A DNA stretch of 64,000 nt from Calothrix sp. PCC 7103 (GTDB lineage Bacteria; Cyanobacteriota; Cyanobacteriia; Cyanobacteriales; Nostocaceae): contig NZ_KB217478.1 of the NCBI RefSeq assembly GCF_000331305.1, positions 6,846,317 to 6,910,316 of the forward strand. The letters run 5' to 3'. Position numbers and translations under genes: made by a program. This document shows positions 1 through 64,000 of this stretch, one piece after another (within the stretch, counting starts at the first letter, position 1; each line of letters begins with the position of its first letter). A model generated the notes under the pieces. It worked only from the letters and a program-made list of their open reading frames with translations. It searched no databases and had not been told where the DNA came from.

Positions 1-231
1 GCGTAAAATTTGTTCAGAATCTTCAATAGTAATATAACGAGATAAAGGAATCCCTAACAAACTGATGGATTCTTGTCGGTGAATAAGTAAAATCACCCGG
101 CTTTTACGTTCTTGCTGGAACTTTTGTAACGAACTGAAACGACGATACTCTGTTTGGCGCCGTTGCCAGATCGGTTGCAGCGAGGAGAGCAAAAGAAAAA
201 TCCAGAATAAATCACCGATACCGAAGCCCAT
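1..231 (-). CDS. SDH-type membrane-anchored serine protease, N-terminal part
   Basis: The 77 codons seen run from an ATG at 231 off the left edge. The protein starts with one hydrophobic segment (about residues 4-19, FGIGDLFWIFLLLSSL), then a basic stretch rich in Gln and Arg (WQRRQ, FQQERKSR) and the run VILLIHRQESISLLGIPLSR. This resembles the N-terminus of cyanobacterial serine dehydrogenase proteinases (SDH_protease family, ClpP/crotonase fold), membrane-anchored SppA-like enzymes. The catalytic Ser/Lys region lies outside the window, so activity cannot be judged. The family call rests on recalled similarity of this conserved N-terminus. Confidence 0.7.
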   Translation of the reverse strand, partial: MGFGIGDLFWIFLLLSSLQPIWQRRQTEYRRFSSLQKFQQERKSRVILLIHRQESISLLGIPLSRYITIEDSEQILR

Positions 232-344
232 AATTATTAATCTTGGTTAAAAAATAGTAGTTGCCGCAATTTATTGTCACAATTTTTGGCTAACCACATT
301 TCTACCTAAAGAGTTAAACTTTGTATTTTCCGACAAATCATCCG

Positions 345-2189
345 TTACATCCGTTGCCAGTCTTTGTTACGCCAAATTTTAATAGTGTCGTCGTCACTCG
401 CACTAACAAGAGTCCGTCCATCGGGGCTAAAAGCAACAGTCCTAATGTAATTATTATGACCACTTAAAGTACAAATCTCCGTTTCAGTACTTACATGCCA
501 AAGTTTAATCGTTTTATCCCAACTACCACTAGCAAGGATTTGCATATCTTGACTGAGTGCAACAGATGAAACAGCACCTTGGTGTCCTGTAAACGTTTTC
601 AACATTCTGCCTGTAACACCGTGCCAAAATTTAATCGTCTTATCGCTGCTAGCACTAATAAGAGTTTCACCAGTTGCATCAAAAGTCAGACTGTTTACAA
701 AAAACGAATGACCTACCAATGTACGTATTTCTCGACCAGTACTAACTTGCCATAACTTAATACTACAATCGGCGCCTGATGACGCGATACACTGACCATC
801 GGGGCTAAAAGCTACAGATAGCACCGCATCAGTATGACCCAAAAAAGTGTTAATAACATCACCTGTACTAATAAGGATAAGTTTGATGCTACAGTCTGAA
901 CTTCCACTTGCTAAGTACTTCCCATTGGGACTAAAAGCAAGAGAATTTACCCAATTAGTATGAGTGTTTAAAGTACGTATATTCTTACCAGTATTTAAAA
1001 ACCACAGTTTAATAGTATTATCCCAACCACCACTAGCAAGTATTTGCCCATCTGGACTAATAGCTACTGTCCAAACTGAGTCACTATGTCCAGCAAACCA
1101 GCGTCCAAAATTGCGGATATTACGACCTGTAGATAAATTCCACAGCTTTATATTATTGTCACCACTACCACTTACAATCAATTTTCCATCAGAACTAATT
1201 GCCACAGCATGAACCATACCCGCATGTCCTTTAATAGTACGGGTGCATTGCCATGTAAACTGAGGTGTAATTGGTGGTTTGGATGATTTAAGTATGATTT
1301 TGGGTGGAGGTGTTGCTGGTGATATTGTATTGGATAAGTGTATATCCTCAACATCTATAGAACTGGCAAAACTAGATAAAAGTGATAACCATTCTTTTAC
1401 AGATTGAGGACGATACTGGGGTTGCATTGCCATTGCTTGCATAATAGCCCGGTCAACACTAGTACTGATATTCGGATTAAAATGACTTGGTGGTAAAAGT
1501 GGTGTATTACGGTTACGTTCGTCAGCACTAGTGGGTACAACACCAGTTAATAAAGTGTATAACGTCGCAGCTAAACCATAAACATCAATATACTCGCCAC
1601 GTGGCGCCTCAAGTTGATATTGTTCAGGAGGTGCAAACCCTGGAGTTCGATAGACAGTGTGACGCTGTACAACACCAGGTATAAATTCTCTAGAAATGCC
1701 AAAATCAATTAATACAGCTTCTGGTTTACCCGCACGAATGATAATATTGCGCGGTTTAATATCTCGATGTAGCAAACCTTTTTGATGAATAACAGTTAAT
1801 GCATCTCCAATTTGCTGAGTGTATAAAAGCGCTTCTTTCTCTGATAATATACCTTGTTCTCTTAACCGCTTGCCTAAATCATCACCTTCGATATACTCCA
1901 TGACGATACAAGGTAATTCATACTCATCAAAAATATTTTCAATTTGCACAATATGAGGGTGACGACACACTGCAAGACGCACCCCTTCCGAGCGAAAATC
2001 TTGCCGTAATTTATCGCGGTGAACTTTCCATGTACGATTATTAAGAACTTCCTCTTTCAGAGTTTTGATTACTCGTAGTTCTGACGTTTGGTTCCTCGCT
2101 AGGTAAGTTATACCTATTCCTCCTTCACCAAGTTTCGATTCAATAATATAGCGTCCACCAAATAACGATTTTCCTCGGTTCCAATCCAT
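345..2189 (-). CDS. Serine/threonine protein kinase with C-terminal WD40 propeller
   Basis: Hanks-type kinase in the N-terminal half: glycine loop GEGGIGITYLA, catalytic loop HRDIKPRN, DFG and the APPEQ activation-segment motif are all present, so it should be active. A Pro-rich linker leads to seven WD40 repeats, each with GH...D.TIKLW-type signatures (GHAGMV, GHSDSV, THTNWV, GHTDAV, GHSFFV, GHQGAV, GHNNYI), enough for one seven-bladed propeller. No membrane segment, so probably cytosolic with the propeller as docking platform. The open frame extends to a TTG at 2234, but the ATG at 2189 (MDWNRGKSLFGGRY) matches the usual start of cyanobacterial kinases and is preferred. It is divergent from the haem sensor at 2385, and a second kinase lies beyond that. 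Substrates are unknown. Confidence 0.93.
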   Translation of the reverse strand: MDWNRGKSLFGGRYIIESKLGEGGIGITYLARNQTSELRVIKTLKEEVLNNRTWKVHRDKLRQDFRSEGVRLAVCRHPHIVQIENIFDEYELPCIVMEYIEGDDLGKRLREQGILSEKEALLYTQQIGDALTVIHQKGLLHRDIKPRNIIIRAGKPEAVLIDFGISREFIPGVVQRHTVYRTPGFAPPEQYQLEAPRGEYIDVYGLAATLYTLLTGVVPTSADERNRNTPLLPPSHFNPNISTSVDRAIMQAMAMQPQYRPQSVKEWLSLLSSFASSIDVEDIHLSNTISPATPPPKIILKSSKPPITPQFTWQCTRTIKGHAGMVHAVAISSDGKLIVSGSGDNNIKLWNLSTGRNIRNFGRWFAGHSDSVWTVAISPDGQILASGGWDNTIKLWFLNTGKNIRTLNTHTNWVNSLAFSPNGKYLASGSSDCSIKLILISTGDVINTFLGHTDAVLSVAFSPDGQCIASSGADCSIKLWQVSTGREIRTLVGHSFFVNSLTFDATGETLISASSDKTIKFWHGVTGRMLKTFTGHQGAVSSVALSQDMQILASGSWDKTIKLWHVSTETEICTLSGHNNYIRTVAFSPDGRTLVSASDDDTIKIWRNKDWQRM

Positions 2190-2318
2190 TTTATCTGATA
2201 AAAAAGCTTGATTTTTCGTATTATTGCCTAACAAACTTGCTTTATTCTCTACTTAAATATTTATTGACTTTCAGAACTGTTATTAACATACATAAACTTA
2301 AAATATCCTCAGATAATG

Positions 2319-2342
2319 TTTACCAATATCATCATTGGTAAA
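2319..2342. promoter_or_regulatory. Inverted repeat in a divergent promoter region
   Basis: TTTACCAAT-N6-ATTGGTAAA, a perfect 9-bp inverted repeat, sits 43-66 bp upstream of the ATG at 2385 and about 130 bp upstream of the divergent kinase start. Position and symmetry fit a dimeric repressor or activator site. It does not match the NtcA (GTA-N8-TAC) spacing. The binding protein is unknown. Confidence 0.35.
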
Positions 2343-2384
2343 TTTATATTGTTATATTTTTGAAAGGGTTAAATTAGTAAAAAT

Positions 2385-3293
2385 ATGTTCAAAAATCTAT
2401 ATTTGAAACAAAAGTTTACAGTATTGCTAATTGTGATATTAGTATTTGGTTTGGGTATAAGTGGATTTACATTGTCTTCTCTACTGCGGCAAAATGCTAA
2501 AAATGACATTGCTTCTACTGGTTTAATGTTAATGGAAGCAATGACTTCAGTACGTAAATATACAAGTACTCAAGTTAATCCGGAATTAGTAGACAAATTA
2601 GATACAAAATTTTTACCGCAGTCTGTACCTGGTTATTCCGCGCGTGAAGTATTTGAGATATTGCGAGGAAAACAAGATTATCGAGACTTTTTCTATAAAG
2701 AAGCAACATTAAACCCTACTAATTTGCGTGATAAAGCAGATAGCTTTGAAACAAATTTAGTTAACCAATTTCGTAATGATAGAGCATTAAAACAACTAAG
2801 TGGTTTTCGTGCAGTTTCAGGTAGAGATATATATTATATAGCCCGCCCCTTATCAGTTTCTGAACCTAGCTGTTTACAGTGTCACTCGACTCCAGATGTT
2901 GCTCCTAAAAGTCAGATTGAGCGTTACGGTAGTGCCAACGGTTTCAACTGGCAATTAAATGAAATAATCGGCGCCCAAGTTATATCGGCACCTGCAAGTA
3001 AAGTTATAGACAAAGCCAACAAATCATCGTTTGTAATTATTGGTCTAGTCTCAGGTGTTTTTATTGCAGTAATATTACTTGTAAACATGTTCTTAAATAA
3101 CCAAGTAATACGCCCACTCAAACGTATAACCCGCGTCGCCGAAGAAGTCAGTACAGGGCATATGGATGTAGAATTTGAGCAATATTCAAACGACGAAATT
3201 GGTAACTTAGCCAAAGCATTTAGACGAATGCAGTTGAGCTTAGAAATGGCTATGCGACGTCTAAAAAAATCACACGGTAACACAAGGAGTTAA
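2385..3293 (+). CDS. Membrane sensor with c-type haem domain (DUF3365/Tll0287-like) and HAMP
   Basis: The protein has an N-terminal membrane segment (about residues 11-33), an extracytoplasmic domain containing a c-type haem motif CLQCH (Cys163, Cys166, His167), a second membrane segment (about 213-237) and a HAMP domain (about 238-290, RPLKRITRVAEEV ... DEIGNLAKAFRRM), after which it stops. The ectodomain matches the DUF3365/Tll0287-like family, in which a haem is covalently bound in the periplasm or lumen. No output kinase, cyclase or methyl-accepting domain is present, so the HAMP must act on a separate partner or be a remnant. It is convergent with the kinase at 3343 and divergent from the WD40 kinase, which makes those kinases candidate partners; this is inference from position only. 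Confidence 0.85.
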   Translation: MFKNLYLKQKFTVLLIVILVFGLGISGFTLSSLLRQNAKNDIASTGLMLMEAMTSVRKYTSTQVNPELVDKLDTKFLPQSVPGYSAREVFEILRGKQDYRDFFYKEATLNPTNLRDKADSFETNLVNQFRNDRALKQLSGFRAVSGRDIYYIARPLSVSEPSCLQCHSTPDVAPKSQIERYGSANGFNWQLNEIIGAQVISAPASKVIDKANKSSFVIIGLVSGVFIAVILLVNMFLNNQVIRPLKRITRVAEEVSTGHMDVEFEQYSNDEIGNLAKAFRRMQLSLEMAMRRLKKSHGNTRS

Positions 3294-3303
3294 AAGTGCG
3301 CTC

Positions 3304-3335
3304 GTGCTGAGTAAACTTTTAACTATACTCAGCAC
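3304..3335. terminator. Bidirectional hairpin terminator
   Basis: GTGCTGAGTA (3304-3313) pairs perfectly with TACTCAGCAC (3326-3335) and is flanked by short A and T runs. It lies in the 49-bp gap between the convergent haem-sensor and kinase genes. Confidence 0.6.
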
Positions 3336-3342
3336 TTTCCAC

Positions 3343-4677
3343 TCATCCCAATAGTTTACGTGAAAATTCAATAGCATCGCGCGAATCAGTAATTTCTCTA
3401 GAAAGAAGCTGAATAAAATGATAGTGGGAAATATCTGGATTTTCTGCTAGTACTTCTTCAATAATTAAATTAGCCATTGGACCAATATAATAAGCTAAAC
3501 AAAGCTCACAACGCTCAATAAATTCTACGTCTAGTGATGGTAATCGAGTTATATAATTTTTATTCTCATTCTCGTTAAAATTATTTTGTGCGTTATTTGA
3601 AGTATTAGAAGTATTACCAATTGTACTACTAAATGTACTATATAATGTATTATCTGATTGGATACTAATTAATGGCCGTTGCCACGATGTATTAGGTATT
3701 TGTGGAGGTAACTGGACAGATAAATTATCAGACAATGTATCATACTTAGGTAACAAACTATATGGTAGGTTAATCTCGGTTTTTGGTAGATTGTTAGATA
3801 GTGGCGCCTCTAGTTGTTCTAAGTGTTGAATAACTTCAGATGCTGACTGGTAGCGGTTTTTAGGAATATCAATCAGCATTTTATTCAGAATTTGTGCAAA
3901 ACCATCGCGAACATTAGCGTAAAATCGCCATTTCCACTCTAAAGAGTATTGATCCATTAAAAACGATGGGTCACGTCCTGTTAATAACACAACTGCTGTA
4001 ACACCCAAAGCATATAAATCGCTACTAGGTGAACACATCCCGATACTAATTTGCTCGCGTGGTGCATATCCGACTTTTCCGACTAATGACATTTTGCCAA
4101 CAAAAGTTACCTGTTCGCCGTTACTGCTGTCATTAAAGTCGGCAATTTGTTTACCCACCCCAAAATCGATTAATACGGGTAAATCTTTTCCTGAAGGCAA
4201 CATGATATTATCGGGGGAAATATCACGATGAATAATATTATGTTCGTGTATATACTCAAGTATAGGTAATAATTTATTCAACCACTCGATAACTTCATTC
4301 TCAGTAAAAACTTTATCTTGCTGCTGCCGTTCGCGCAATAAAGCCGAATAAGTCTTACCATCAACGTATTCTTGCACCAAAAATAATCTGCCTTCTCCTT
4401 CAAAACACGCCAAAAAGCGGGGAATTTGTGGGTGTTCGAGTTGGTGCAAAATTTTGGCTTCGCGTTTAAATAAATTTCGACACTTTTCTATACCGCTTTC
4501 ACCCGTACCAATAGGGGCAAACTCTTTGAGAACACAAGCTTCATTGAAACGACGGGTATCAAAAGCTAAATAAGTTCTGCCAAGTCCTCCTTGTCCGAGT
4601 AGCTTTTGAATTATGTAACGATTATCAATTAATGTTCCAGCAGCTATTTCTGAACCTGCTAAGGGGAACTCAGACAT
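3343..4677 (-). CDS. Serine/threonine protein kinase
   Basis: Hanks-type kinase domain in about the first 300 residues: glycine loop GQGGLGRTYLA, VLKEF with the ATP-binding Lys, catalytic loop HRDISPDN (Ser in place of the usual Lys after HRD, as in several cyanobacterial kinases) and DFG. A low-complexity Asn/Ser-rich linker follows, then a C-terminal helical module of about 65 residues (SLDVEFIERCELCLAYYIGP onward) of a kind seen at the end of other cyanobacterial signalling proteins. The frame is open to 4716, but ATG 4677 has AGGAGT at ideal spacing and is chosen. It follows the PhnD-like gene by 55 bp on the same strand with a hairpin between them, so the two may be cotranscribed. Confidence 0.9.
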   Translation of the reverse strand: MSEFPLAGSEIAAGTLIDNRYIIQKLLGQGGLGRTYLAFDTRRFNEACVLKEFAPIGTGESGIEKCRNLFKREAKILHQLEHPQIPRFLACFEGEGRLFLVQEYVDGKTYSALLRERQQQDKVFTENEVIEWLNKLLPILEYIHEHNIIHRDISPDNIMLPSGKDLPVLIDFGVGKQIADFNDSSNGEQVTFVGKMSLVGKVGYAPREQISIGMCSPSSDLYALGVTAVVLLTGRDPSFLMDQYSLEWKWRFYANVRDGFAQILNKMLIDIPKNRYQSASEVIQHLEQLEAPLSNNLPKTEINLPYSLLPKYDTLSDNLSVQLPPQIPNTSWQRPLISIQSDNTLYSTFSSTIGNTSNTSNNAQNNFNENENKNYITRLPSLDVEFIERCELCLAYYIGPMANLIIEEVLAENPDISHYHFIQLLSREITDSRDAIEFSRKLLG

Positions 4678-4699
4678 ATGTATTACTCCTGGATGATAG

Positions 4700-4721
4700 G
4701 AGACGTGATTTATCACGTCTC
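4700..4721. repeat. Intercistronic hairpin of the GAGACGT repeat family
   Basis: GAGACGTGAT-TT-ATCACGTCTC is a perfect 10-bp stem between the PhnD-like gene and the ribosome-binding site of the downstream kinase. Related GTAGAGAC/GTCTCTAC hairpins lie at 5821-5848 and 55632-55657, so it belongs to a dispersed family. Here it could attenuate or process the dicistronic message. Confidence 0.55.
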
Positions 4722-4732
4722 TACATTGTTTG

Positions 4733-5632
4733 TTATTTGGTTTTGGTTGATATTATGGGTACTAAGACAACGGGGGTTTGTTTGACTTTTTCCTCGAACG
4801 GTCGGACTTTTTCGATGAGTTTAATAAATTGTTCGTAGTTGGGTATTTTGGCAGTAGGCACATAACCAGCATCTGCGACAATATCAGCAGGCGCCTCACG
4901 CATCGATTTTTGAATTATAGAAAGAAGATTATGGTCGAGATTGGGTGATGCGAGTACAACACCTGCTGGTATCCAACGACTTGTATGTAAAACTCGAAAC
5001 TTGGTTTGTGGAAATTCGCGCACCAAAGTTTCATAATCACTTTTAGATATAGCAATAGCTTCAACAGTGCTATCCCTTAACCAGGTTAGTGCAGCTTTTG
5101 GAGTTGGCGCCAATTTGATTTGTGCTAGTGTCATTCCATACAAGTCGTACAATGGCACATAAAAAGCAGCAGCGGAACCAGGTTTACCTAAAGCAATAAC
5201 TTGATTAGCCAAGTCGCCAATTTTTTGATAAGGTTTATCATCACGAACCAAGATTAAAGAACGCTGCGTGCTAGTAACACCCTCCATTGAAAAAATCGGT
5301 TTATATTGTGACGAAGCAATAGCAATTGCCGCTAGTCCTGGTGGTGCAAAAACGACTTCCCAGGTTTTGCGCTCTACTTGTGCAACTGCTTGTAATTCAT
5401 TGTAAGCAGGCTCAAGTTCGACAATTTTTTTGCTTTTGGTAGCAATATAATCCTTAAATTGTTCATACAAGACGAGCGAATTGGCGCCTTCACCGTAGCT
5501 AACAACACCAATACTGAGCTTATCGATATTCGAGTCGTCATCTGGCACATTTTTAGTTTCGCATCCTACTGCAAATAGTCCAATAATTAGAACTTGCAGC
5601 AGCAGAAAGCGCGATAAACTCATAAATTTCAT
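4733..5632 (-). CDS. PhnD-like periplasmic substrate-binding lipoprotein
   Basis: The N-terminus is a lipoprotein signal (hydrophobic LLLQVLIIGLFAVGC with lipobox FAVGC, Cys24). The body resembles phosphate/phosphite/phosphonate ABC-type binding proteins (PhnD/SsuA/transferrin superfamily): LSIGVVSYGEG near the start of the mature protein, SMEGVTSTQRSLILVRDD and KPGSAAAFYVPL in the lobes. No permease or ATPase gene is adjacent, so it may be an orphan binding protein acting as sensor rather than a transporter. The next gene downstream on the same strand is a Ser/Thr kinase. The ligand cannot be predicted. Confidence 0.8.
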   Translation of the reverse strand: MKFMSLSRFLLLQVLIIGLFAVGCETKNVPDDDSNIDKLSIGVVSYGEGANSLVLYEQFKDYIATKSKKIVELEPAYNELQAVAQVERKTWEVVFAPPGLAAIAIASSQYKPIFSMEGVTSTQRSLILVRDDKPYQKIGDLANQVIALGKPGSAAAFYVPLYDLYGMTLAQIKLAPTPKAALTWLRDSTVEAIAISKSDYETLVREFPQTKFRVLHTSRWIPAGVVLASPNLDHNLLSIIQKSMREAPADIVADAGYVPTAKIPNYEQFIKLIEKVRPFEEKVKQTPVVLVPIISTKTK

Positions 5633-6045
5633 TACAGAGAGTGAGTTATAGCGTGATGATTAATTATTTATTTGAATTAAAGTTGAAATGGAACAGTAAT
5701 TAAATAAATATACTTCGCAATATTTTGTTAAAAAAGTGTTATAAATTACTAATATAATATGTTTTTAATTGTCATTTTTAATTATTTCAATTGTTAATCA
5801 GTAACAAAGATTAAATACCAGTAGAGACCCGATTAATACGGTCTCTACACATGTTGATTTAATTATTTTGGATTATACCTCTGGCTTAATTCCCATTGCT
5901 TGTTAAGGAAAAACTCTGTAGATATATGTACAGTAATTTACCTTCTAATAAACCAAAGCTTGTGTCTGTTTTCAAACTGTACTACTAATTGTACAAAACT
6001 TCAATTTATATCACTGCACAGGCAGGGATACCTGTGCTACAAAAC
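5633..6045. other. Gene-free stretch with two dispersed hairpins
   Basis: This AT-rich spacer holds the promoter side of the PhnD-like gene and the 3' end of radA. It contains GTAGAGAC-N12-GTCTCTAC at 5821-5848 and a CACAGGCA...TACCTGTG-type hairpin at about 6014-6037 just downstream of radA. No coding sequence was seen. Confidence 0.6.
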
Positions 6046-7674
6046 TTAATAATCAGTACTTTCGGCTTCATCGTCGTCATCGGGGGCAAAATCTTCAACG
6101 CTGAGTGATTGTTGAGGAATTGCGGCGATAATAGCGTCGATAACTTTTGCTACTGGTATAATCTCGATATCTAATTCGGGGAATTTTTGCCCTTTTGGGA
6201 CAATTGCGCGTTTAAATCCGAGTTTTGCCGCTTCTTTAAGTCGCATTTCCATTTGCGAGACTGGACGGACTTGTCCACCTAAACCGACTTCACCAATTAG
6301 CACTGTACTCGAATCTACTATTCTGTCTCGGAAACTCGCAACTAAGGCAATGGCAACTCCTAAGTCAACGGCAGGTTCTTCGACATTTAAACCACCTACA
6401 GAAGCTACATAAGAATCTAACTTTGACATTGGAATTCCTACTCGCTTTTCTAATACTGCGAGAATTTGCACTAGACGGTTATAGTCAATACCTGTTGTGG
6501 AACGACGTGGAGATGAGTAACTTGTTGGACTTACCAATGCTTGTAGTTCAACTACAATGGGACGTGTTCCTTCACACGCTACTACTATTGCACTTCCAGG
6601 CGCCGGATCATCGCGGTTTCCTAAAAATAACTCTGATGGGTTGGGTACTTCTCGTAACCCGTTGGCAACCATTTCAAAAATACCAATTTCATGAGTGGCG
6701 CCAAAACGGTTTTTAACGGTTCGTAGTAAACGGTGCGAAGCAAACCTGTCACCTTCAAAGTAAAGTACTGTATCTACAAGGTGTTCTAATACCCTTGGTC
6801 CTGCAATTGCACCTTCTTTTGTTACGTGTCCGACTATCAACATCGTGATATCTTCGTGTTTCGCGACTTTCATTAGTGCTGCTGTACATTCGCGTACCTG
6901 TGCTACTGAACCAGGCGACGATGCTAGACTTGGAAAAAATACCGTTTGAATACTGTCTATTACCGCTAAATCTGGCTTTAAGGAATCAATTTCACGCAAT
7001 ATTTCTTCTAAATCTGTCTCTGGCAAGATGTACAAATCGGCGCCTACTGATTTAGTCGTTTCAATTAAAGGTATTTCTTCTAACTTGATGCTTTTACTCG
7101 CATTTCCGTTTTCACTGCTAATGGTATTACCATTACTATTATCATTCTCCTGTCCTTCTGTTTCTACAGGGTTAGAATCAGGTGCCTCAGTATCGATGCT
7201 TGGTGACACCCCCAAACGTGAAGCACGCAATTTCACCTGTTGTCCAGATTCTTCACCAGAAATATATAGAATACGATAACGCTGTGCGAGTTGATTCGAT
7301 ACCTGTAACAATAGCGTTGATTTACCAATACCTGGGTCTCCACCGATGAGTACCATCGAACCTGGTACTACACCCCCACCTAAAACACGGTCGAGTTCGC
7401 CGTATCCTGAAGGTAAACGTAAAACTTGACGGTCGCTAATTTGGTCGAACCTGAGAGAAGCCCGTGCTTTTGGAGGTTTCTTAGCAGTTTTGCTGGCGCC
7501 TGATTGATTATGCCAGCTACCAACACCCCGACTTGGTGAAGCATCACTGGCAGCTTGGTTAGAAATTTGTTCTTCTAGCGAATTGTAGGTACCGCAACCG
7601 GGACACCGACCGAACCACTGTGGTGATTCACAACCGCATTCGTTGCAAACGTAAATTGTACGAGACTTTGGCAT
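6046..7674 (-). CDS. radA: DNA repair protein RadA (Sms)
   Basis: The order is an N-terminal C4 zinc finger (CNECGCESPQWFGRCPGCG, residues 10-28), a RecA-like ATPase with Walker A GGDPGIGKSTLL, the RadA-specific KNRFG motif (within TVKNRFGATHEIG) and a C-terminal Lon-like domain (LDSYVASVGGLNVEEPAVDL). RadA is a hexameric helicase that promotes branch migration in recombination repair. At 542 residues it is longer than the roughly 450-460 of Escherichia coli; the extra length is a low-complexity Asn/Ser/Glu-rich insert at about residues 160-200, which looks like a disordered loop. It is divergent from rpaB. Confidence 0.97.
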   Translation of the reverse strand: MPKSRTIYVCNECGCESPQWFGRCPGCGTYNSLEEQISNQAASDASPSRGVGSWHNQSGASKTAKKPPKARASLRFDQISDRQVLRLPSGYGELDRVLGGGVVPGSMVLIGGDPGIGKSTLLLQVSNQLAQRYRILYISGEESGQQVKLRASRLGVSPSIDTEAPDSNPVETEGQENDNSNGNTISSENGNASKSIKLEEIPLIETTKSVGADLYILPETDLEEILREIDSLKPDLAVIDSIQTVFFPSLASSPGSVAQVRECTAALMKVAKHEDITMLIVGHVTKEGAIAGPRVLEHLVDTVLYFEGDRFASHRLLRTVKNRFGATHEIGIFEMVANGLREVPNPSELFLGNRDDPAPGSAIVVACEGTRPIVVELQALVSPTSYSSPRRSTTGIDYNRLVQILAVLEKRVGIPMSKLDSYVASVGGLNVEEPAVDLGVAIALVASFRDRIVDSSTVLIGEVGLGGQVRPVSQMEMRLKEAAKLGFKRAIVPKGQKFPELDIEIIPVAKVIDAIIAAIPQQSLSVEDFAPDDDDEAESTDY

Positions 7675-7710
7675 TTTAATTTAGTTAAATAATCTTAATT
7701 TTTCCTTAAG

Positions 7711-7722
7711 TTTTACGTAAAA
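7711..7722. promoter_or_regulatory. 12-bp palindrome in the radA-rpaB divergent region
   Basis: TTTTACGTAAAA is a perfect palindrome 37 bp upstream of the radA start and 119 bp upstream of the rpaB start preferred here. It could be an operator for either gene; no family consensus is matched with confidence. The AT-rich context makes chance occurrence possible. Confidence 0.25.
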
Positions 7723-7841
7723 GTAAAAGCTAGTAATCGCAAGCCTTGTAGGTTTTTACTAACGAATAATAGGAATGATATCTTAATAATATGGTAGTAA
7801 AAATTAATCATGCAAAGTTTAGTTAAGGAGCGTTGAGAAAC

Positions 7842-8570: not shown

Positions 8571-8575
8571 GTAGG

Positions 8576-55622: not shown

Positions 55623-55631
55623 TTTTATAAG

Positions 55632-55657: not shown

Positions 55658-55922
55658 TGGCAATTTTACGTTTATCTTGGTAAATAACGTCTTAAAACTC
55701 GTAGCCTTCGACAAATTCAATCATTATTTTTGCTAGTTTTAATAAGACACTGTTGGATTCAAATTTTGTGAGTCAAACACGCTAGCTTTTAATTATTATA
55801 AAATTATTAAATTAATAAGTATTTAGTTAATTATACTTAAATAATGTGGAGTCGTCAGTTTAATTCCGGCGCCTCCACGTACATAATAGTTTGTGTAAAT
55901 TTAATTACTTACACGCTCGATT

Positions 55923-56366: not shown

Positions 56367-56515
56367 TGTTAATTTATATTAATGTAATTGTATAATACCG
56401 CGCTTTGGTGATATGTAAAGTCGCAGTATCACTTTCAGTTGAAACGGTATATAACGAGTTTACAAGGAGTAGAGTAAAACAACATGCGGTTTTCATACTC
56501 CTTGGAGGTTTTAAA

Positions 56516-57118: not shown

Positions 57119-57139
57119 TTACATGGGATACTGAACGGC

Positions 57140-57400
57140 GCCTAATTTCCTAGAGGATAAGTTAGATATAGATATATCCTCTAGGAAAAGACCTTTCGGT
57201 CGCGAAAATTTCTAGATAAAAACTAATATATCTGTTCGTCTAGAAAAATAGTCAACGGTGCCTAATTTCCTAGAGGATAAGTTAGATATAGATATATCCT
57301 CTAGGAAAAGACCTTTCGGTCGCGAAAATTTCTAGATAAAAGTAATATATATATGTTCGTTTAGAAAAAATAGGTAACGTGCCTAATTTCCTAGAGGATA
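57140..57400. repeat. Tandem array of ~120-bp structured repeats
   Basis: Three units start with GCCTAATTTCCTAGAGGATA at 57140, 57260 and 57381 (periods 120 and 121); the third stops after about 20 bp. Each full unit holds a perfect 14-bp stem TTTCCTAGAGGATA/TATCCTCTAGGAAA, a small GACC-TTTC-GGTC hairpin, and TTTCTAGA/TCTAGAAA arms around an AT-rich loop. In unit 2 the last arm reads TTTAGAAA, a change that keeps a G-U pair in RNA. Not CRISPR: no spacers. It lies between the broken nuclease-like gene and the 949-residue hydrolase gene. Confidence 0.85.
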
Positions 57401-57452
57401 ATTTTGATATATAAGAATTGTTGGGTTACGCTGCCGCTCCACCCAACCTACT

Positions 57453-60302
57453 TTAGAAGGTGATGGGTGCTACTGGTTCGATGTCTGAGTTAAAGCCACC
57501 TATTTGGTTGGTTCTTAGTACCCATGCAGTGGCGCCAAGTTTGAGAAATGTTTCTAAGATGGTATCGTTGGCTACACGGGGGAGTATGGCACGCCAAGAG
57601 AGTAAGCCAGTAACTAGGTTTTTGATGGGGTCGTCTTCTAAGCTGCTTCCTAAACTTTTGCCTGGTTGTTGCCAGTCTACACGCGCACCAAAAGGAAGAA
57701 TTTGACGTTTTAATTTTTTACCTAGTTCTTCAAGTTGGGTTAAATTATCTGCTTGGTCGGGATGTTGTTCTATCCATTCGTCAATGAGAGAATTAGAACG
57801 GATGGCTTGAGTTATTTGTTTGAGTGCTGCATATAAAGCTTGGTTAGAGTCTTGAGAACAGTTGTTTGCGGCGCCTACATAAGTACCTCCTGTTCCGTCA
57901 CCGATACGATAGCGTGCTGCCATAATTTCGAGTTGGCGAATCATTTGGTTTAAAGGCGAGTATACTGTGCCTTCAGTAGTTTCAAAGTATCCTGTGAAAG
58001 GTTCAAATTTGATTAAAGTATCACATACGGGACGTATTCCTGCCCAACCATATTGACGGTCGCCTAAAAATCGTGACCAGTGTAATGTGCCTGCTGTTAA
58101 TCCATCTATATTTTGGGTGTATATTTGATGGTACACAATATCAAATCGTAGTTCGTCTGTTAATGGTTCGCGTACTACTGTTGCTACACCATAAGCGAAG
58201 TGTCCAAAGTATACAGGACCTTTTGCTGCTGCCTCAGTTTTTCTACCTCCAATGCCTCCATAATTATGTAGTAGCAGCGCGCGTTCTCCTTCTCGCCATG
58301 TTTGTTCGCTCTGTATATTGGAGCCGTCATAGCAAAGTAAAGCTGAACTTATTTTACCTTTTTGCAGGGCTAAATTATCCCAAGATTCTTTTTTGATATA
58401 GTGTTTTACTTCAGATTTACCGATGATTTTACGTTCTGGTTTTAATTGAAAAAGCGCGCGGGGAGCAATTGAACGCACTACAAATCGTTTAGACTCATTT
58501 TGGGCGCCATATATATACCACCCTGTTTGATTAATCGGTGATTTTTCAATATCTTGGTTAGTAAATGGTTGTACGCCATCAACATTCGCTACTACAGAAG
58601 GCATTGATACAAATTCTTCGGCGCCATCAAATTGTTTAGAATGACGGTTATAGTGAATAACCCGGAATAAATCATTCCCTATTGGCTCAATAAATTTTAC
58701 TAATGCGTAGTATAAACCTGTTATTTGTATTGGTTCACGTTTAATACAAAGATAATCTTTATCTCCTATCTCCATTAATACTGGGTCATCCAACATTACC
58801 ATGATGTCATCATAAGGATGGGCGCCTGCTAATGATTCGAGGGGGTTTACTAGGCGCCAGTGATTAACACGGGTAGGAAGAATTAGGCCTTGCTCGGTGC
58901 TATACTCTGCTTCAGCATTGAAATGTACGTCTTTTGTTACCGAACGTACATCTAAAAGTAACTCTGGAATATCTGAAAAGCGTAATTGCACCACTTTTCC
59001 AAGTAAATACTCATAACCTTTTGCTGTATGATGCACCTCAAATAAAACTTCTTTAATAAAACAACGCTGATTTTTTGGTGGCAAAATTAGGCGCCCCATC
59101 CAAGCACCAACAGCTTGATACTCTGGAGGTAAAGATTGCTGTAGCGGGTAAAAGTCTGGATGGTTAAATATAGCTTCCCAATATTTTTCGTAGTTGCTTT
59201 GATGACGTGGAGGAGCAAGTTCTTTTAAATAAACTGTATCTTGTAAAATTCCAGATACCCAATCTATCGTTTGCTGTAAATAAGTGCGACCATCAGGTAA
59301 ACGTTTATCTGGATCCATCACTCCCCCAGGTAATTGATGACCAACTTTACCCAAAGAAATTAAGCTAACTTTACCGCGTCGCTTTGCACGGTTCCAATAA
59401 GATAGAAAAAATAACTTCCAACGTTTAGGAAAAGCAATGGCGCCTAACCTTTCCAATGGGTCTTTTTTACCAGCTAGATGATAAACATGTTGAATTTTAA
59501 GAATATTATTATTACCACTGAAAACTCCCCCTAGGGAAATGATATCAATTGGTGGTGAAAAAAGTACATCATCAAGATAGGGAGCAGCAGCCATTGATAT
59601 TTGTCCCCCACCGCTAAACCCAATTAAGGTGATAGGAACATTACTACCAGCCTGATAACCATGTTTTATTAAACTGTTATATATTACTTGTGCGGTTCCT
59701 CGGTTATAAATGGCGCCATATCGTTGGTCTGCAGAAACCCACACTACTAATGCATTGCGTATATTAATGATGGCGCCAAGAATATTCGCAGGATTTTTAA
59801 TACGCAGTTTATCAGCAAATCGCCAAAACCAAGATAATGGATAATCTTCTGTTAAAGAACGATTTAATACAGAATATGGCATTACTCCTCGTATCAAATA
59901 AAAACTTTCGGGTAATGCTGCCGTTAAATCCCTGAGAAATCGCTCAACATCAGGTAAGTATTCATACTTAGCTTGTCCAACTCCGTCTAAGTAAATAATA
60001 TAATGAGATACTTTATGTGGTGGCGCCTCAGTTTGCGTTTCAACTTCAGAGTAAATACTTGTATCAACAGTATCACCAAACCATCCAGCCCACCATCCAA
60101 GTGCCTCTATAGGCGCCAGCATTGCCGCTAAAATTAAAGCAATAAAACTAATAATACCTAAATTAACTGTAATTTTAAATGTGCGTGTTAATGCTGCATA
60201 AGTACCATTTATAACAGGTTGAAACTGAAATAAAGCTAACACACCAAGCAACGCTACCAGAGCAATGACAGAAAATTTGATAACTTGCTTTCTAGTACTC
60301 AT
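57453..60302 (-). CDS. Large membrane-anchored alpha/beta hydrolase-like protein
   Basis: 949 residues. Two N-terminal membrane helices (about 11-28 and 47-65) precede an alpha/beta-hydrolase-like domain: YIIYLDGVGQAKYEYLPDVE, nucleophile elbow GFSGGGQ with Ser230, Asp281 (HLAGKKDPLE) and His322 (KVGHQLPGG) as possible triad. A long middle region (330-690) is unrecognised. Near the C-terminus His701 (YFGHFAYGVA) and Cys815 (AANNCSQDSNQAL) are in the order of permuted papain-fold (LRAT/NlpC-like) enzymes. Some databases call such proteins CAAX protease, but the CPBP motifs were not seen. Its start overlaps the upstream Yip1-like gene by 4 bp, so coupled expression is expected. Confidence 0.8.
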   Translation of the reverse strand: MSTRKQVIKFSVIALVALLGVLALFQFQPVINGTYAALTRTFKITVNLGIISFIALILAAMLAPIEALGWWAGWFGDTVDTSIYSEVETQTEAPPHKVSHYIIYLDGVGQAKYEYLPDVERFLRDLTAALPESFYLIRGVMPYSVLNRSLTEDYPLSWFWRFADKLRIKNPANILGAIINIRNALVVWVSADQRYGAIYNRGTAQVIYNSLIKHGYQAGSNVPITLIGFSGGGQISMAAAPYLDDVLFSPPIDIISLGGVFSGNNNILKIQHVYHLAGKKDPLERLGAIAFPKRWKLFFLSYWNRAKRRGKVSLISLGKVGHQLPGGVMDPDKRLPDGRTYLQQTIDWVSGILQDTVYLKELAPPRHQSNYEKYWEAIFNHPDFYPLQQSLPPEYQAVGAWMGRLILPPKNQRCFIKEVLFEVHHTAKGYEYLLGKVVQLRFSDIPELLLDVRSVTKDVHFNAEAEYSTEQGLILPTRVNHWRLVNPLESLAGAHPYDDIMVMLDDPVLMEIGDKDYLCIKREPIQITGLYYALVKFIEPIGNDLFRVIHYNRHSKQFDGAEEFVSMPSVVANVDGVQPFTNQDIEKSPINQTGWYIYGAQNESKRFVVRSIAPRALFQLKPERKIIGKSEVKHYIKKESWDNLALQKGKISSALLCYDGSNIQSEQTWREGERALLLHNYGGIGGRKTEAAAKGPVYFGHFAYGVATVVREPLTDELRFDIVYHQIYTQNIDGLTAGTLHWSRFLGDRQYGWAGIRPVCDTLIKFEPFTGYFETTEGTVYSPLNQMIRQLEIMAARYRIGDGTGGTYVGAANNCSQDSNQALYAALKQITQAIRSNSLIDEWIEQHPDQADNLTQLEELGKKLKRQILPFGARVDWQQPGKSLGSSLEDDPIKNLVTGLLSWRAILPRVANDTILETFLKLGATAWVLRTNQIGGFNSDIEPVAPITF

Positions 60303-60967
60303 CTTCGTTTTCTCCGGTGTGTGTGCTTATTTCCAAAACCCGTTTGCAAAGTTTCTTCTAATTGTCGCAAATCAGTGACAAGATAAGTTCCTGCCGCAGT
60401 ATTTGATAACCACTTCCCAAAACTTGCTACTGGTCTACCAATACTACGCTGTGCCACCTGAAGTACAAACCAACCAATAATACCGCACCAGAATACTTGC
60501 CACAAAGTTAAACCAGTGGTAATTGAAAATCCTCGCACAAATGCTAACAAATTCCACAGCGATAGCAAAATTTGAATTGGAATCCCCAAATATGGCAACG
60601 CAATGAAAAACGAAAGCAATAACGGCGCCGTTGCTAGTCCCAAAGTGCGATACACTACACTTAACTGAACATCTGCTCTAAATAGTAAATTACTAACACC
60701 CCAAACGCTCAAAACCCAAAAGAAATAGCTAAAAGCAAATAATAATGCTGAAATTAGTAAACACAAAACAAAACGTAATCTACTAACTCGATTTACAAAT
60801 AATACAATTGCCTGAGCCAGGGCATTAGAAAGACCCACCAATAATAGTAAAATAAAAACTGACCTCTTACCTTGAGGAAAAGTTTCCATAATCCTAAATG
60901 CTTCTGGATTCAGCGTTATTGCTGCTATTACCACTTCCCAGAATTTATTTAGTATTTGTGTACTCAT
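60299..60967 (-). CDS. Yip1-like polytopic membrane protein
   Basis: 222 residues with five or so membrane helices (SVFILLLLVGLSNALAQAIV, FVLCLLISALLFAFSYFFWV, APLLLSFFIALPYLGIPIQI and others) and a soluble tail (SIGRPVASFGKWLSNTA, basic end HTHRRKRR). The helix pattern recalls the Yip1/YIP1 family. It is upstream of and overlaps (ATGA) the 949-residue hydrolase gene, a strong sign that the two proteins work together in a membrane complex. Function unknown. Confidence 0.75.
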   Translation of the reverse strand: MSTQILNKFWEVVIAAITLNPEAFRIMETFPQGKRSVFILLLLVGLSNALAQAIVLFVNRVSRLRFVLCLLISALLFAFSYFFWVLSVWGVSNLLFRADVQLSVVYRTLGLATAPLLLSFFIALPYLGIPIQILLSLWNLLAFVRGFSITTGLTLWQVFWCGIIGWFVLQVAQRSIGRPVASFGKWLSNTAAGTYLVTDLRQLEETLQTGFGNKHTHRRKRR

Positions 60968-61063
60968 ATATTGGCGCCTAATTATTTAGGTTTAAAATAA
61001 TATTACATCTCAATTAGCTGTTCTATACGGTCTAATCTATCTGCACTCTGGCTCATTAGCTAC

Positions 61064-61624
61064 CTACCTCGGTTCTAATTTTACAAACATGAATGGTGTA
61101 TCCGGTGTTACTGAAAACGCATCGAACGAATAGTTACTCCAGGTTTTTTGTTTTTCGTTGAAACCACTCAAAACCCCATTCACATAAATGTTCTCAGTAC
61201 GTTCTTTCCCATATTGGCGCACAATGCGCTGCTGTGCAACTGGAATCATAAAGTTGTTTCCACTGCCTGCATTCGATAATTCATTTCTGGGAATGACTCC
61301 TATTTTTATTGCCGCTCCTTTGCGCGCGTTCAATGCTGCATTAATTGCATGAAGTGCGCGTTCTGCTGTTTGCTGATTTTCCCAAAATAATGTTTTAGTT
61401 GAATTTTTAAAAATTTCACTAAATGTCCCGTAGACAAACTTTGCATTGTAGCGTCGGTTATCAATTGTTAAATTATTAATTGCTATTATATTTCCTCTTT
61501 TGTCTTTAACTAAATTAAAGTTTACGTTTCTTTGCGTGGATGTTTGGGCAGGTGTTGAGATTATTGCGCTGGGGTAAAATAAGGTTAAGGCACCTGCTAT
61601 CAAAAGTGAAGAAGTAATTTTCAT
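61064..61624 (-). CDS. Secreted hypothetical protein
   Basis: 186 residues with a Sec signal peptide (SSLLIAGALTLFYPSAIIST, cleavage near PAQT). The mature part contains VNFNLVKDKRGNIIAINNLT, AERALHAINAALNARKGAAI and a C-terminal SVTPDTPFMFVKLEPR. No family recognised and no PEP-CTERM tail. A perfect 12-bp inverted repeat lies 28-57 bp upstream of the ATG (61652-61681). Confidence 0.7.
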   Translation of the reverse strand: MKITSSLLIAGALTLFYPSAIISTPAQTSTQRNVNFNLVKDKRGNIIAINNLTIDNRRYNAKFVYGTFSEIFKNSTKTLFWENQQTAERALHAINAALNARKGAAIKIGVIPRNELSNAGSGNNFMIPVAQQRIVRQYGKERTENIYVNGVLSGFNEKQKTWSNYSFDAFSVTPDTPFMFVKLEPR

Positions 61625-61651
61625 ATCTATTCAACTATAAACTTTATACAT

Positions 61652-61681
61652 AGCGTATATTACTACTCCGTAATATACGCT
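61652..61681. promoter_or_regulatory. 12-bp inverted repeat upstream of the secreted protein gene
   Basis: AGCGTATATTAC-TACTCC-GTAATATACGCT is perfect over 12 bp with a 6-nt spacer, ending 28 bp before the ATG at 61624. It could be an operator or a 5' UTR hairpin. The adjacent stretch TAATACTCCGTGTCATTAAT at about 61811 repeats part of it. Confidence 0.45.
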
Positions 61682-61914
61682 GTGACATAATGATTTATAA
61701 TTATCTAAACTTTATGATTAAAGAGGTATTTATGAAGTTTATTTAAATGCCAATTTGCAACGGATACAAAGGATGTAACGGATGAGTTCTGCATTATGAA
61801 TGTAGATAATGTAATACTCCGTGTCATTAATTCTGAGGCATTAAGAAAATAAACCACGCTCGTTCACGAAGGAAGAAGTAAAGTAAAAGTGCCAGTAGAT
61901 GTAGTCATTTAAAA

Positions 61915-63297
61915 CTAACCATCCGTTACTTCCGTTGCCAACCACTCATTTACTTCGTGTGCTAACCATTCTAGCTCAACTTCAGATATTATACTGCCAG
62001 TATTAACTTTAAGTTGATATTCGTTAACACCAGCATGAATAGTTAGCTGTGAAGGAATCTCTACATGTTCACCATCCGTGTCTTTGGTAAAGTGCTTAGG
62101 TGTGTAAACTACTTTATCGATATTACTTATAGCTTCTGGACGCGGATTATGAAATTTGGCGCCAAATAATTCATATGTCAAAGATATGTGATATTGATTT
62201 AGTAGCAAGCGAGTTTTACCGATTAAGCAAAATATTACCCAGTAAACCATGAAAACACCTACTCCCCAAAAGGGTAAGGAAAATAAAGCTAAGGCGATAT
62301 TTATAAAAGATGGCATACTCAAGGCACCTGCTGTCCAAACAAATATTCCCGTATTCCAAGCAACGGCAAATAATGCGATAAATATTAGCGATGCGTCAAG
62401 ACCTGATGGTGGTATTAATATTTCTAAGGCGCCTGAACTTTTATTTAATTGAATTTTGCTCCCGCTTGGCTTAATAGTAGCGGGTACTAGTTGAGATGGC
62501 GCCTCTAATATATCTATCGCATAGCGTGCAGAATGTAATCTTCTATCTAAACTGGGTTGCGTCATTGACTGTAACCAGTTTGTAAAATCTATACTTAAAT
62601 TAATTGCTTGTTTAAATTGAATTTTTAAATCATTTTGCGGTAAGTCAGCAGGATGTGTACCTGTACAACAGTGAATTAATGTGGCACCTAAACTGTAAAG
62701 GTCGGATGCGGGAACTGCGCTACCTCCAAATTGTTCTGGTGCCATATACCCATAAGTTCCAACAACGGTATGCTCTAAGTTAGAAGATGTGATTGTTTTA
62801 ACTGCACCAAAATCTATTAAATAAGCTTGTATATTATTAGGTTTTATATCTAGCAATATATTACTAGGCTTGATGTCACGATGGATAACTGGAGGATTTT
62901 GTTCGTGTAAATAAATAAGTATTTCTAATATTTGTCGTGCAATTTCTTTAACTTCTATCTCTGTAAAGCTATGCCATTGTTTAAGATGTTGTTCTAATGT
63001 TGGAGAATTTATATAAGTTTGGACAAGGGCAAAATATTCAGGTGTTTGGGAGTCAAAACTATCTATGTAGCGCGGAAGCTTAGGGTGCCTTAAGTTTTTC
63101 AAAATTTGCACTTCGCGCTCAAACAGCTTTAAATCATCCCACTCAAATCCGTCATTGAATAACAGTAGCTTGATAACAACCAATTCTTGTGTTCTCAAGT
63201 CACGTGCTAGTAAAGTTCTTTTCCCCGCTTTCTTACTCAGTTCGCTTTGAATTTCGTAATTTCCCAATGTTTTGCCAATTATATTTTTCACTACCAA
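61915..63297 (-). CDS. Serine/threonine protein kinase with membrane-anchored C-terminus
   Basis: Kinase domain (about residues 12-265) with TLLARDL, VVIKLLLF (Lys), HRDIKPSNILLD, DFGAVKT, APEQFGGSAVPASDLYSLGA. The glycine loop is unusual (SELSKKAGKRTLLAR; no GxGxxG), so nucleotide binding may differ. Two membrane helices (about 298-317, 325-358) and a C-terminal soluble domain (about 365-460, EVELEWLAHEVNEWLATEV) follow. Start is TTG 63297 or GTG 63291; no ATG is available. It encodes the only complete copy of the tail duplicated at 63337-63474. Confidence 0.9.
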   Translation of the reverse strand: MVVKNIIGKTLGNYEIQSELSKKAGKRTLLARDLRTQELVVIKLLLFNDGFEWDDLKLFEREVQILKNLRHPKLPRYIDSFDSQTPEYFALVQTYINSPTLEQHLKQWHSFTEIEVKEIARQILEILIYLHEQNPPVIHRDIKPSNILLDIKPNNIQAYLIDFGAVKTITSSNLEHTVVGTYGYMAPEQFGGSAVPASDLYSLGATLIHCCTGTHPADLPQNDLKIQFKQAINLSIDFTNWLQSMTQPSLDRRLHSARYAIDILEAPSQLVPATIKPSGSKIQLNKSSGALEILIPPSGLDASLIFIALFAVAWNTGIFVWTAGALSMPSFINIALALFSLPFWGVGVFMVYWVIFCLIGKTRLLLNQYHISLTYELFGAKFHNPRPEAISNIDKVVYTPKHFTKDTDGEHVEIPSQLTIHAGVNEYQLKVNTGSIISEVELEWLAHEVNEWLATEVTDG

Positions 63298-63336
63298 CCC
63301 CTACCCGACTCTTTGGTGATACTCAAACCGAATCAA

Positions 63337-63474
63337 TCACGCGCGTTCGTGTGCTAACCATTCCACTTCAGCTTCGGTGTTGAATCCTCCACCAATTTGA
63401 TACTTTTGTTTTCCTGCCCACAGAATAAGCTGTGGGGGTATTTCTATTTTGGCGCCTTTGAAAGTCAGATTCAT
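63337..63474 (-). pseudogene. Duplicated fragment of the kinase C-terminal tail
   Basis: A 45-codon frame from ATG 63474 reads KGAKIEIPPQLILWAGKQKY and FNTEAEVEWLAHERA, which parallels VEIPSQLTIHAGVNEYQLKV and EVELEWLAHE at the C-terminus of the kinase at 61915. It lacks a kinase domain, so it is a relic of a second, deleted kinase gene or a partial tandem duplication. Could also be expressed as a small protein. Confidence 0.6.
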
Positions 63475-63835
63475 ATTGCTGAGGTATATATACCCTAACA
63501 GCTAATCTCTTCTCTTTTAGCTTTGTGAAACCGAGGTAGTTTGAAACAAAGAATTTCCCAGCTCGCGCGCTAACTGAGTTCGGTTAAGTTTGAAGCGGAT
63601 GCTGAGAAACAACGCAAATAATACGGTCTTGTCCATTAAAAAACTGGCGCCCCTTCAGGGGATGGACATGATAGCGAGCAGTAAGTTAGCAGGAAACGCT
63701 ATGGTCATTACACCGAGTGTCGCAAGCTCTTTTTTCAGACGAATTTTACTTGTGATACCAATTTTTTGTGAAGCTGCATAGAAACTATGCTTATATAGCA
63801 AGGCTTTAAGCCAATTGATTATGTGCAGCTTCGTA
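63475..63835. other. Intergenic region
   Basis: No convincing gene. GGCGCCCCTTCAGGGGATGG (about 63648-63666) contains a CCCCTTCAGGGG hairpin. The only longer frame (63590-63781, plus) has no start context or recognisable pattern. Confidence 0.4.
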
Positions 63836-63934
63836 TTAAAATGGTATGAGTGGTTTTTTGACAGTTAATGGTGCATAATCACGGTTTAGTACTTCTATCG
63901 CTTTGCGCTCAATGGAGATGCGTTTTTCGCTCAC
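63836..63934 (-). CDS. Short frame at the right edge, overlapping an upstream frame
   Basis: GTG 63934 to TAA 63836 encodes 32 residues (VSEKRISIERKAIEVLNRDY, PLTVKKPLIPF). Its GTG overlaps the TGA of the upstream frame (GTGA). Either a tiny coupled gene or, together with the 63931-64000 frame, one gene split by a frameshift; the residues look protein-like. Confidence 0.3.
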   Translation of the reverse strand: MSEKRISIERKAIEVLNRDYAPLTVKKPLIPF

Positions 63935-64000
63935 TTGGTTCGACCATCAACCGTTAAAAGATAGGGAGCATCCCAATTTTGCCAAAATATAAATTTGTCA
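63931..64000 (-). CDS. C-terminal end of a gene running off the right edge
   Basis: Minus-strand frame ending in TGA at 63931 reads DKFIFWQNWDAPYLLTVDGR-TK, with aromatic-rich, protein-like content. Too short for a family call. Confidence 0.3.
   Translation of the reverse strand, partial: DKFIFWQNWDAPYLLTVDGRTK

What the first reader, a model, noticed from the sequence alone, without database searches (positions are those of the whole stretch)
1..64000. GGCGCC is hugely over-represented, apparently replacing HIP1
By eye I counted about 110 GGCGCC hexamers in 64 kb, in both coding and intergenic DNA. At roughly 40% GC about 4-5 are expected by chance. I noticed no GCGATCGC, the HIP1 octamer that is abundant in most cyanobacteria. 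The sites are dispersed, about one per 580 bp, often as AGGCGCCT or TGGCGCCA. It looks like a HIP1 analogue built on another palindrome, perhaps shaped by methylation or by mismatch-repair bias.
Basis: partly seen in the sequence, partly recalled or inferred. Interest (0 to 1): 0.7.

Follow-up and report, generated by a model that had tools for sequence, protein, structure and literature searches.

The report
GGCGCC repeats replacing HIP1 in Calothrix
A branch of the cyanobacterium Calothrix carries about 1,500 scattered copies per million bases of one short DNA word, GGCGCC, in place of the word most cyanobacteria repeat; this was published for one genome in 2015, and here it proves to be shared by a whole genus that also shares a lone DNA-methylating enzyme predicted to mark that word.

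Summary
The window holds 115 GGCGCC (3.9 expected from base composition) and no GCGATCGC; the 11.58-Mb genome holds 17,704 GGCGCC and 163 GCGATCGC. It is not new for this genome: Elhai 2015 (PMC4390886) reports GGCGCC as the alternative HIP of Calothrix PCC 7103, which this genome matches (14 HIP1 per Mb in both; identity inferred).

New here: (i) the trait is genus-wide: 7 of 7 genomes at 1,150-1,711/Mb, the other 185 family genomes at about 111/Mb or less, against Elhai's view that exceptional HIPs are sporadic; (ii) an orphan HindV-type (predicted GRCGYC) m5C methyltransferase sits at one conserved locus, without HindVP endonuclease; (iii) recent losses are mostly C-to-T at the third base, the footprint expected of 5-methylcytosine there; (iv) at purely synonymous positions GGCGCC is the best-kept of 414 and 457 codon pairs in two distant congeners; (v) near-misses show no excess conversion to GGCGCC, so the mismatch-repair ratchet gets no support (low power); (vi) decay is fast in three of five close lineages, including this one. 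Methylation itself was not measured.

The parts
156..63651 (.). 115 dispersed GGCGCC sites (alternative HIP)
   Evidence: one search lists all positions; M0 expectation 3.9
57453..60302 (-). 949-aa ORF holding 12 of the 115 sites, the most of any ORF of 150 aa or more by my count (one per 237 bp; some shorter ORFs are denser)
   Evidence: positions 57531-60112, recounted; ORF
1..64000 (.). absence of GCGATCGC and CGATCG (0 each) and depletion of GATC (21) and GGCC (13)
36000..55900 (+). stretch used to find orthologous regions in six congeners; site gain and loss were measured on the 253.7 kb around it
   Evidence: The methyltransferase L013 lies outside the window, at G000:C7:8004469-8005407

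Best explanation
GGCGCC is the alternative HIP of a whole Calothrix/Dulcicalothrix clade. An orphan HindV-type m5C methyltransferase (L013, predicted GRCGYC), fixed at one chromosomal locus before the clade radiated, methylates the third base, giving GG(m5C)GCC. The methylated site is then kept at DNA level, independently of the protein encoded, most likely because the methylated palindrome is used by the cell (weak purifying selection), with directional repair as the main alternative. Loss runs mainly through deamination of that C to T. In three of five close lineages, this genome among them, maintenance has probably weakened recently. Shown: enrichment, clade-wide sharing, conserved locus, missing REase, synonymous-site retention, C3>T excess. 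Inferred: the methylation, the enzyme's specificity, and selection rather than repair bias.
For: Seven of 7 genus genomes at 1,150-1,711/Mb, the 185 others in the family sample at about 111/Mb or less. L013 at the same locus in 7 of 7, one of them cut by a contig end; no RE_HindVP over cut-off in 7 of 7. In relatives, 18 of 18 full-length HindVP REases lie within 62 bp of an L013-family gene (17 full, 1 partial; coordinates), and the target-recognition region is alike. Over 195 genomes of the order: intact R-M median 0.8 GGCGCC/Mb (n=18), REase fragment 11.6 (8), orphan MTase 34.0 (10), neither 9.7 (156); the two densest genomes are both orphan-MTase. Synonymous retention at conserved Gly-Ala: 0.81 (n=123) in G298, 0.64 (n=119) in G285, against 0.29 and 0.14 for the product of its codons outside the pair; GGCGCC ranks 1 of 414 (G298), 1 of 457 (G285) and 1 of 255 (G310) codon pairs by retention over expectation. 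C3>T is 63 of 91 loss changes, 15 expected at generic rates; site versus non-site GCG p=3e-7.
Against: The footprint is clear only in own, G220 and G262 and absent in G310 plus G321 (9/446 vs 41/2412, p=0.69); that grouping was made after seeing the data. With ancestors defined by G298=G285 instead, site versus non-site GCG is 48/266 vs 182/1324, p=0.085. In own, G220 and G262 non-C3 positions show no constraint (23 observed, 22.6 expected), and GGCGCC ranks only 38 of 536 codon pairs in G220. Constraint seen on G298, stems, G310 and G321 (11 vs 38.9) is not seen in the unpolarised G285 comparison (46 non-C3 changes, 0.99 of generic). Two other GC-only palindromes, GCGCGC and CGCGCG, are kept about as well as GGCGCC (p=0.40 in G298, 0.19 in G285). 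Of 10 orphan-MTase genomes 7 have only 24-40 GGCGCC/Mb, so an orphan enzyme alone is not sufficient. Other GRCGYC sites are depleted (GACGTC 0.08, GACGCC/GGCGTC 0.21 of M0), so what maintains GGCGCC is narrower than the predicted target. No methylation data.
Confidence: 0.58

Rival explanations
1. Elhai's ratchet: a GmeC-directed mismatch-repair system converts near-misses to GGmCGCC and stops at about one site per kb; the sites need have no function.
For: Published model (PMC4390886, Discussion read). Density is in the range the model expects; gaps under 50 bp are scarce (0.034 vs 0.078 expected). The inferred methylated base is the internal C, as the model requires. Three of the four other one-base neighbour classes counted are scarcer in the genus than in two outgroups (GACGCC/GGCGTC is not scarcer than in G197).
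Against: Near-misses became GGCGCC in 1 of 184 lineage-windows (about 0.75 expected): no excess, though up to about 7-fold cannot be excluded. The second HindV-type MTase, which Elhai thought may have been critical, is missing from G310 and G285: all 13 and 9 PF00145 matches were typed, yet G310 has 1,701/Mb. The trait is clade-wide, not sporadic.
Confidence: 0.27
2. Codon or dipeptide usage, base composition or dispersed repeats inflate the count.
For: Sites are denser in genes (1.70/kb) than outside (0.99/kb), and frame 0 (Gly-Ala) is the commonest (485 of 885).
Against: 485 of 981 Gly-Ala pairs are GGCGCC where codon usage predicts 13.9; all three frames and unassigned DNA hold sites; 1,012 of 1,015 contexts are distinct; other family genomes have few, the two outgroups of similar GC 10 and 40 per Mb.
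Confidence: 0.02
3. A DNA-uptake or recombination signal (like DUS or chi), with methylation incidental.
For: Density and clade-specificity fit; such selection would also keep synonymous sites.
Against: Nothing tested here ties the site to uptake or recombination; the C3>T footprint points to methylation of the site itself.
Confidence: 0.08
4. A short-patch T:G repair enzyme (Vsr-like) specific for the site turns GGTGCC back to GGCGCC and so enriches it; lineages that lost it now decay.
For: Would explain why C3>T losses differ between lineages (54/888 vs 9/446, p=0.0006).
Against: GGTGCC/GGCACC is not depleted but about 2.5- to 7-fold commoner in the genus than in two outgroups; 0 of 31 ancestral GGTGCC/GGCACC windows reverted.
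Confidence: 0.08

Closest known systems
Alternative HIP of Calothrix PCC 7103 (Elhai 2015, PMC4390886)
   Same: Same word, same genome as far as can be told (HIP1 14 per Mb in both), same loss of HIP1, same GATC depletion, two HindV-type (GRCGYC) MTases.
   Different: Described there from one genome plus 19 kb of Calothrix D253 and called sporadic; here 7 of 7 genomes of the genus. Two genus members have a single HindV-type MTase. The likely methylated base is inferred here from mutations.
HIP1 (GCGATCGC) of most cyanobacteria
   Same: GC-rich palindrome, about 1 per kb, genic and intergenic, linked to orphan MTases (per Elhai).
   Different: Different word and enzyme; HIP1 is nearly absent here (163 in 11.58 Mb against 1,756-6,152 in five other family genomes).
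HindV / HindVP-type GRCGYC restriction-modification systems
   Same: L013 shares 54-68% identity with MTases lying next to full RE_HindVP in relatives, and their target-recognition region.
   Different: No REase in the genus, and GGCGCC is enriched instead of avoided.

Membership tests
Highly iterated palindrome (HIP, sensu Elhai) | GC-rich palindrome far above expectation, 1000-2000 per Mb, dispersed | tested here: met
   1,528/Mb; 31x M0 in 464 kb; 1,012 of 1,015 contexts distinct
Highly iterated palindrome (HIP, sensu Elhai) | HIP1 low where an alternative HIP is high | tested here: met
   31-163 GCGATCGC per genome in 7 of 7 genus genomes; 1,756-6,152 in the 5 other family genomes
Highly iterated palindrome (HIP, sensu Elhai) | a methyltransferase predicted to act on the site is present | tested here: met
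   L013 orthologue in 7 of 7, one partial at a contig end; specificity predicted from HindVP-linked relatives
Highly iterated palindrome (HIP, sensu Elhai) | site is methylated in the cell | not testable with these tools
   only the indirect C3>T footprint
HindV-type R-M system | MTase of the HindV type | tested here: met
   18 of 18 full HindVP REases in the order sample lie within 62 bp of an L013-family gene (coordinates); that HindVP means GRCGYC is recalled
HindV-type R-M system | cognate RE_HindVP endonuclease | tested here: not met
   0 of 7 genus genomes over cut-off; so an orphan MTase, not an R-M system
GmeC-directed mismatch-repair ratchet | near-misses convert to GGCGCC faster than generic rates | tested here: inconclusive
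   1 gain in 184 lineage-windows, about 0.75 expected
DNA-uptake sequence | preferential uptake of DNA holding the word | not testable with these tools
   none

The most novel reading that the evidence does not exclude
It would be the first alternative HIP shown to persist as a clade trait, with natural keeping and losing lineages to compare.
Probability: 0.3. Interest if true: 0.75.

Novelty: already known. Interest (0 to 1): 0.45.

Why it matters
The function of HIP1, present in most cyanobacteria, is an open question. A clade that swapped the word and kept the replacement offers a comparison that separates the word from its role: same family, different palindrome, different methyltransferase.

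Tried and rejected
Considered and rejected: L009/L010 and L020 as the GGCGCC enzyme (L010 lies beside RE_TdeIII, L020 beside RE_Eco29kI; L009 is 76% identical to L010); dispersed repeats; codon usage; a simple rule that an orphan MTase suffices (8 of 10 orphan genomes have only 24-132/Mb); number of extra HindV-type MTases as the cause of faster decay (own, G220, G262, G321 and G298 have extras, G310 and G285 none, and G321 decays slowly); G059 as a second GGCGCC case (its word is CGGCGCCG; AGGCGCCT and TGGCGCCA are not enriched). Not every C5 MTase of the own genome was assigned a specificity. Neighbour ORFs of MTases were scanned only in part: 10 in NCBIfam, 10 in Pfam. The script ended in a format error after printing the tests cited.

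Limits: alignment is a star on the own sequence, 101-164 kb per close genome; ancestral states need unanimity of others, which favours conserved sites, more so for deep branches; lineage groups were drawn after seeing the rates; sizes of other G handles are rounded by the tool. No structure was predicted.
Full report
OBSERVATION. The window has 115 GGCGCC and no GCGATCGC or CGATCG. The genome, 11,584,393 bp in 12 contigs, has 17,704 GGCGCC and 163 GCGATCGC. In 464 kb sampled, GGCGCC is 31 times the composition expectation and 1.85 times the maximal-order Markov value, which the sites themselves inflate; GATC stands at 0.10, GGCC at 0.15, GACGTC at 0.08 and GACGCC/GGCGTC at 0.21 of expectation. 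In 653.7 kb, 881 sites are in assigned ORFs (1.70/kb) and 136 outside (0.99/kb); 485 of 981 Gly-Ala dipeptides are spelled GGCGCC where codon usage elsewhere predicts 13.9.

ALREADY IN PRINT. Elhai 2015 (PMC4390886; abstract, outline, the 12 of 23 passages that a word search showed, and the whole Discussion read) reports GGCGCC as the alternative HIP of Calothrix PCC 7103, with HIP1 at 14 per Mb, GATC at 16% of expectation, two predicted GRCGYC MTases, and a proposed GmeC-directed mismatch-repair ratchet. The present genome has 163/11.58 = 14.1 HIP1 per Mb and the size I recall for PCC 7103. The names of the six congeners follow from contig lengths shared: G310 = Dulcicalothrix desertica PCC 7102, G321 = Calothrix PCC 7716, G298 = NIES-4105, G262 = HK-06, G285 = MAG C42_A2020_038, G220 = MAG FI2-JRJ7. 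The own record itself was not shown, so the identity with PCC 7103 is inferred. Searches for other reports (listings only, in the held open-licence library) gave no other paper holding both GGCGCC and Calothrix; a 2018 paper on HIP1 selection (Xu and colleagues) is recalled and not held.

A GENUS TRAIT. Of 192 family genomes searched, 7 of 7 of the own genus hold 1,150-1,711 GGCGCC per Mb; the other 185 hold at most about 111 (sizes rounded by the tool). All 7 have 31-163 GCGATCGC in total; the five other family members of the same call have 1,756-6,152. The most distant member is 81.9% identical in the aligned region. This contradicts Elhai's statement that exceptional HIPs occur sporadically, not in clades. 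That member, G285, still has 1,105 GATC per Mb in the sampled region against 205-490 in the rest and 2,690-3,870 in two outgroups, so the swap did not wait for the extreme GATC loss.

THE ENZYME. PF00145 gives 15 matches in the own genome. L013 and L014 (59% identical) are the HindV type. In a sample of 195 genomes of the order, 18 full-length RE_HindVP genes all lie within 62 bp of an L013-family gene (17 full, 1 partial; coordinates). L013 looks like that group in the part where C5 enzymes read their target (its place is recalled); in the whole protein one R-M-conserved column differs, outside that part. RE_HindVP does not reach its cut-off in any of the 7 genus genomes. L013 lies between the same two genes in 6 of 7 genomes (with two short ORFs also there in G298); in G262 the contig ends inside it, with the other side syntenic. 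Extra HindV-type copies lie at scattered places in own, G220, G262, G298 and G321. So the second copy that Elhai thought may have been critical is not needed: G310 has 1,701/Mb.

ACROSS THE ORDER. GGCGCC per Mb by class (195 genomes; 3 genomes with only MTase or REase pieces fall in no class): intact R-M median 0.8 (n=18), MTase with REase fragment 11.6 (n=8), full MTase without REase trace 34.0 (n=10), neither 9.7 (n=156). The two densest genomes are both in the orphan class, but 8 of the 10 have only 24-132. Classes were not corrected for GC or kinship. G059, the densest, has GC 53.7% in the sample and its word is CGGCGCCG, so it is not a clean replicate.

HOW SITES COME AND GO. Own sites are intact in G310, G298 and G285 at 0.88, 0.76 and 0.57, hexamers with 4 GC at 0.725, 0.416 and 0.288; 0 of 74 in outgroup G197. 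But GCGCGC and CGCGCG, also enriched here, are kept nearly as well (65 of 91 pooled in G298, p=0.40; 48 of 99 in G285, p=0.19). The sharper test is synonymous: at conserved Gly-Ala, GGCGCC is kept at 0.92, 0.91, 0.80, 0.84, 0.81 and 0.64 in G310, G321, G220, G262, G298 and G285, against 0.62, 0.67, 0.67, 0.66, 0.29 and 0.14 for the product of its two codons outside the pair. Ranked against all codon pairs with 20 or more cases, by retention over the product of the two codons, GGCGCC is 1 of 255 (G310), 1 of 414 (G298) and 1 of 457 (G285), but 38 of 536 in G220; GCGCGC, with 19 and 16 cases below the limit, also exceeds expectation (0.79 vs 0.40, 0.50 vs 0.21).

THE FOOTPRINT. On five terminal lineages, 667 ancestral site-lineages show 85 losses with 91 changes, 63 of them C3>T (15.0 expected at generic rate). 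Against other GCG contexts: 63/1334 vs 145/6871, p=3e-7. This is what deamination of 5-methylcytosine at base 3 would leave. With ancestors defined by G298=G285, C3>T is 48 of 85 changes, and 48/266 vs 182/1324 against other GCG is p=0.085. Own GGTGCC/GGCACC words have GGCGCC in at least one relative in 75 of 95 cases.

RESULTS THAT CUT AGAINST A SIMPLE STORY. The footprint is concentrated: C3>T at sites versus non-site GCG is 0.0573/0.0295 in own, 0.0625/0.0180 in G220, 0.0629/0.0218 in G262, but 0.0115/0.0111 in G310 and 0.0257/0.0205 in G321. Own, G220 and G262 together 54/888 versus G310 and G321 9/446: p=0.0006 (grouping made after the fact). On the G298 branch, three stems, G310 and G321 non-C3 positions are constrained (11 changes, 38.9 expected), in own/G220/G262 not (23, 22.6 expected); the unpolarised G285 comparison, which mixes gains in the others with losses in G285, shows none either (46 changes, 0.99 of generic; 57 vs 85.5 if added to the first group). 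Gains are few: 5 in the five terminal lineages against 85 losses, and near-misses gained the site 1 time in 184 (about 0.75 expected). Long-term keeping and present decay can be reconciled by a recent lapse of maintenance in three lineages, or by slightly harmful losses not yet removed; the low losses in G310 (2 of 87) and G321 (11 of 136) at like branch lengths favour the first.

VERDICT. A true, strong, already published feature, here extended to a genus, tied to a vertically kept orphan enzyme, with a mutational footprint pointing to the probable methylated base and synonymous-site evidence of DNA-level maintenance. What reads the site is unknown.

Noticed in passing
outside the window: G000:C12:1215005-1216153 (L020): CCGCGG occurs 8 times in 11.58 Mb (1-8 per genome in all 7 genus members); in the own genome an m5C MTase lies beside an RE_Eco29kI endonuclease, whose known target (recalled) is CCGCGG.
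   Followed up: partly
own genome, 464 kb sample: Many other palindromes are nearly missing: CCATGG, CCGCGG, CGTACG, GAGCTC, GTCGAC, GTGCAC, TGCGCA 0 each, TTCGAA 1 against 154 expected, suggesting many R-M systems.
   Followed up: no
own genome, 464 kb and 253.7 kb samples: GCGCGC and CGCGCG are also enriched (109 and 145 against 23.9) and about as well conserved as GGCGCC; unexplained.
   Followed up: partly
L143-L162 (genome G059): Another possible alternative HIP: CGGCGCCG 388 in 352 kb (41x), with CGGCGCTG and CAGCGCCG 22-23x; only 74 GCGATCGC in 3.8 Mb, while two of three congeners searched have over 3,000.
   Followed up: partly
genome G007: 134 GCGATCGC in 3.7 Mb against 3,110 and 3,424 in congeners G036 and G078: a likely HIP1 loss; a replacement was not looked for.
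   Followed up: no
genome G170: 15,293 GCGATCGC in 6.4 Mb (about 2,390/Mb) together with 3,403 GGCGCC (532/Mb) and 13 CCGCGG: both words high in one genome.
   Followed up: no
L010:2680-3462: RE_TdeIII endonuclease beside MTase L010; a 76%-identical MTase L009 lies elsewhere with no RE found in the two neighbours scanned.
   Followed up: no
L257:6673-8649 (L011): A 658-aa m5C MTase with a long C-terminal part lies 2.7-2.8 kb upstream of L013 in own, G310 and G262, and is not there in the fetched stretches of G220, G298, G321 and G285.
   Followed up: no
own, 653.7 kb sample: GGCGCC pairs closer than 50 bp are less than half as common as a random spread gives (0.034 vs 0.078).
   Followed up: no
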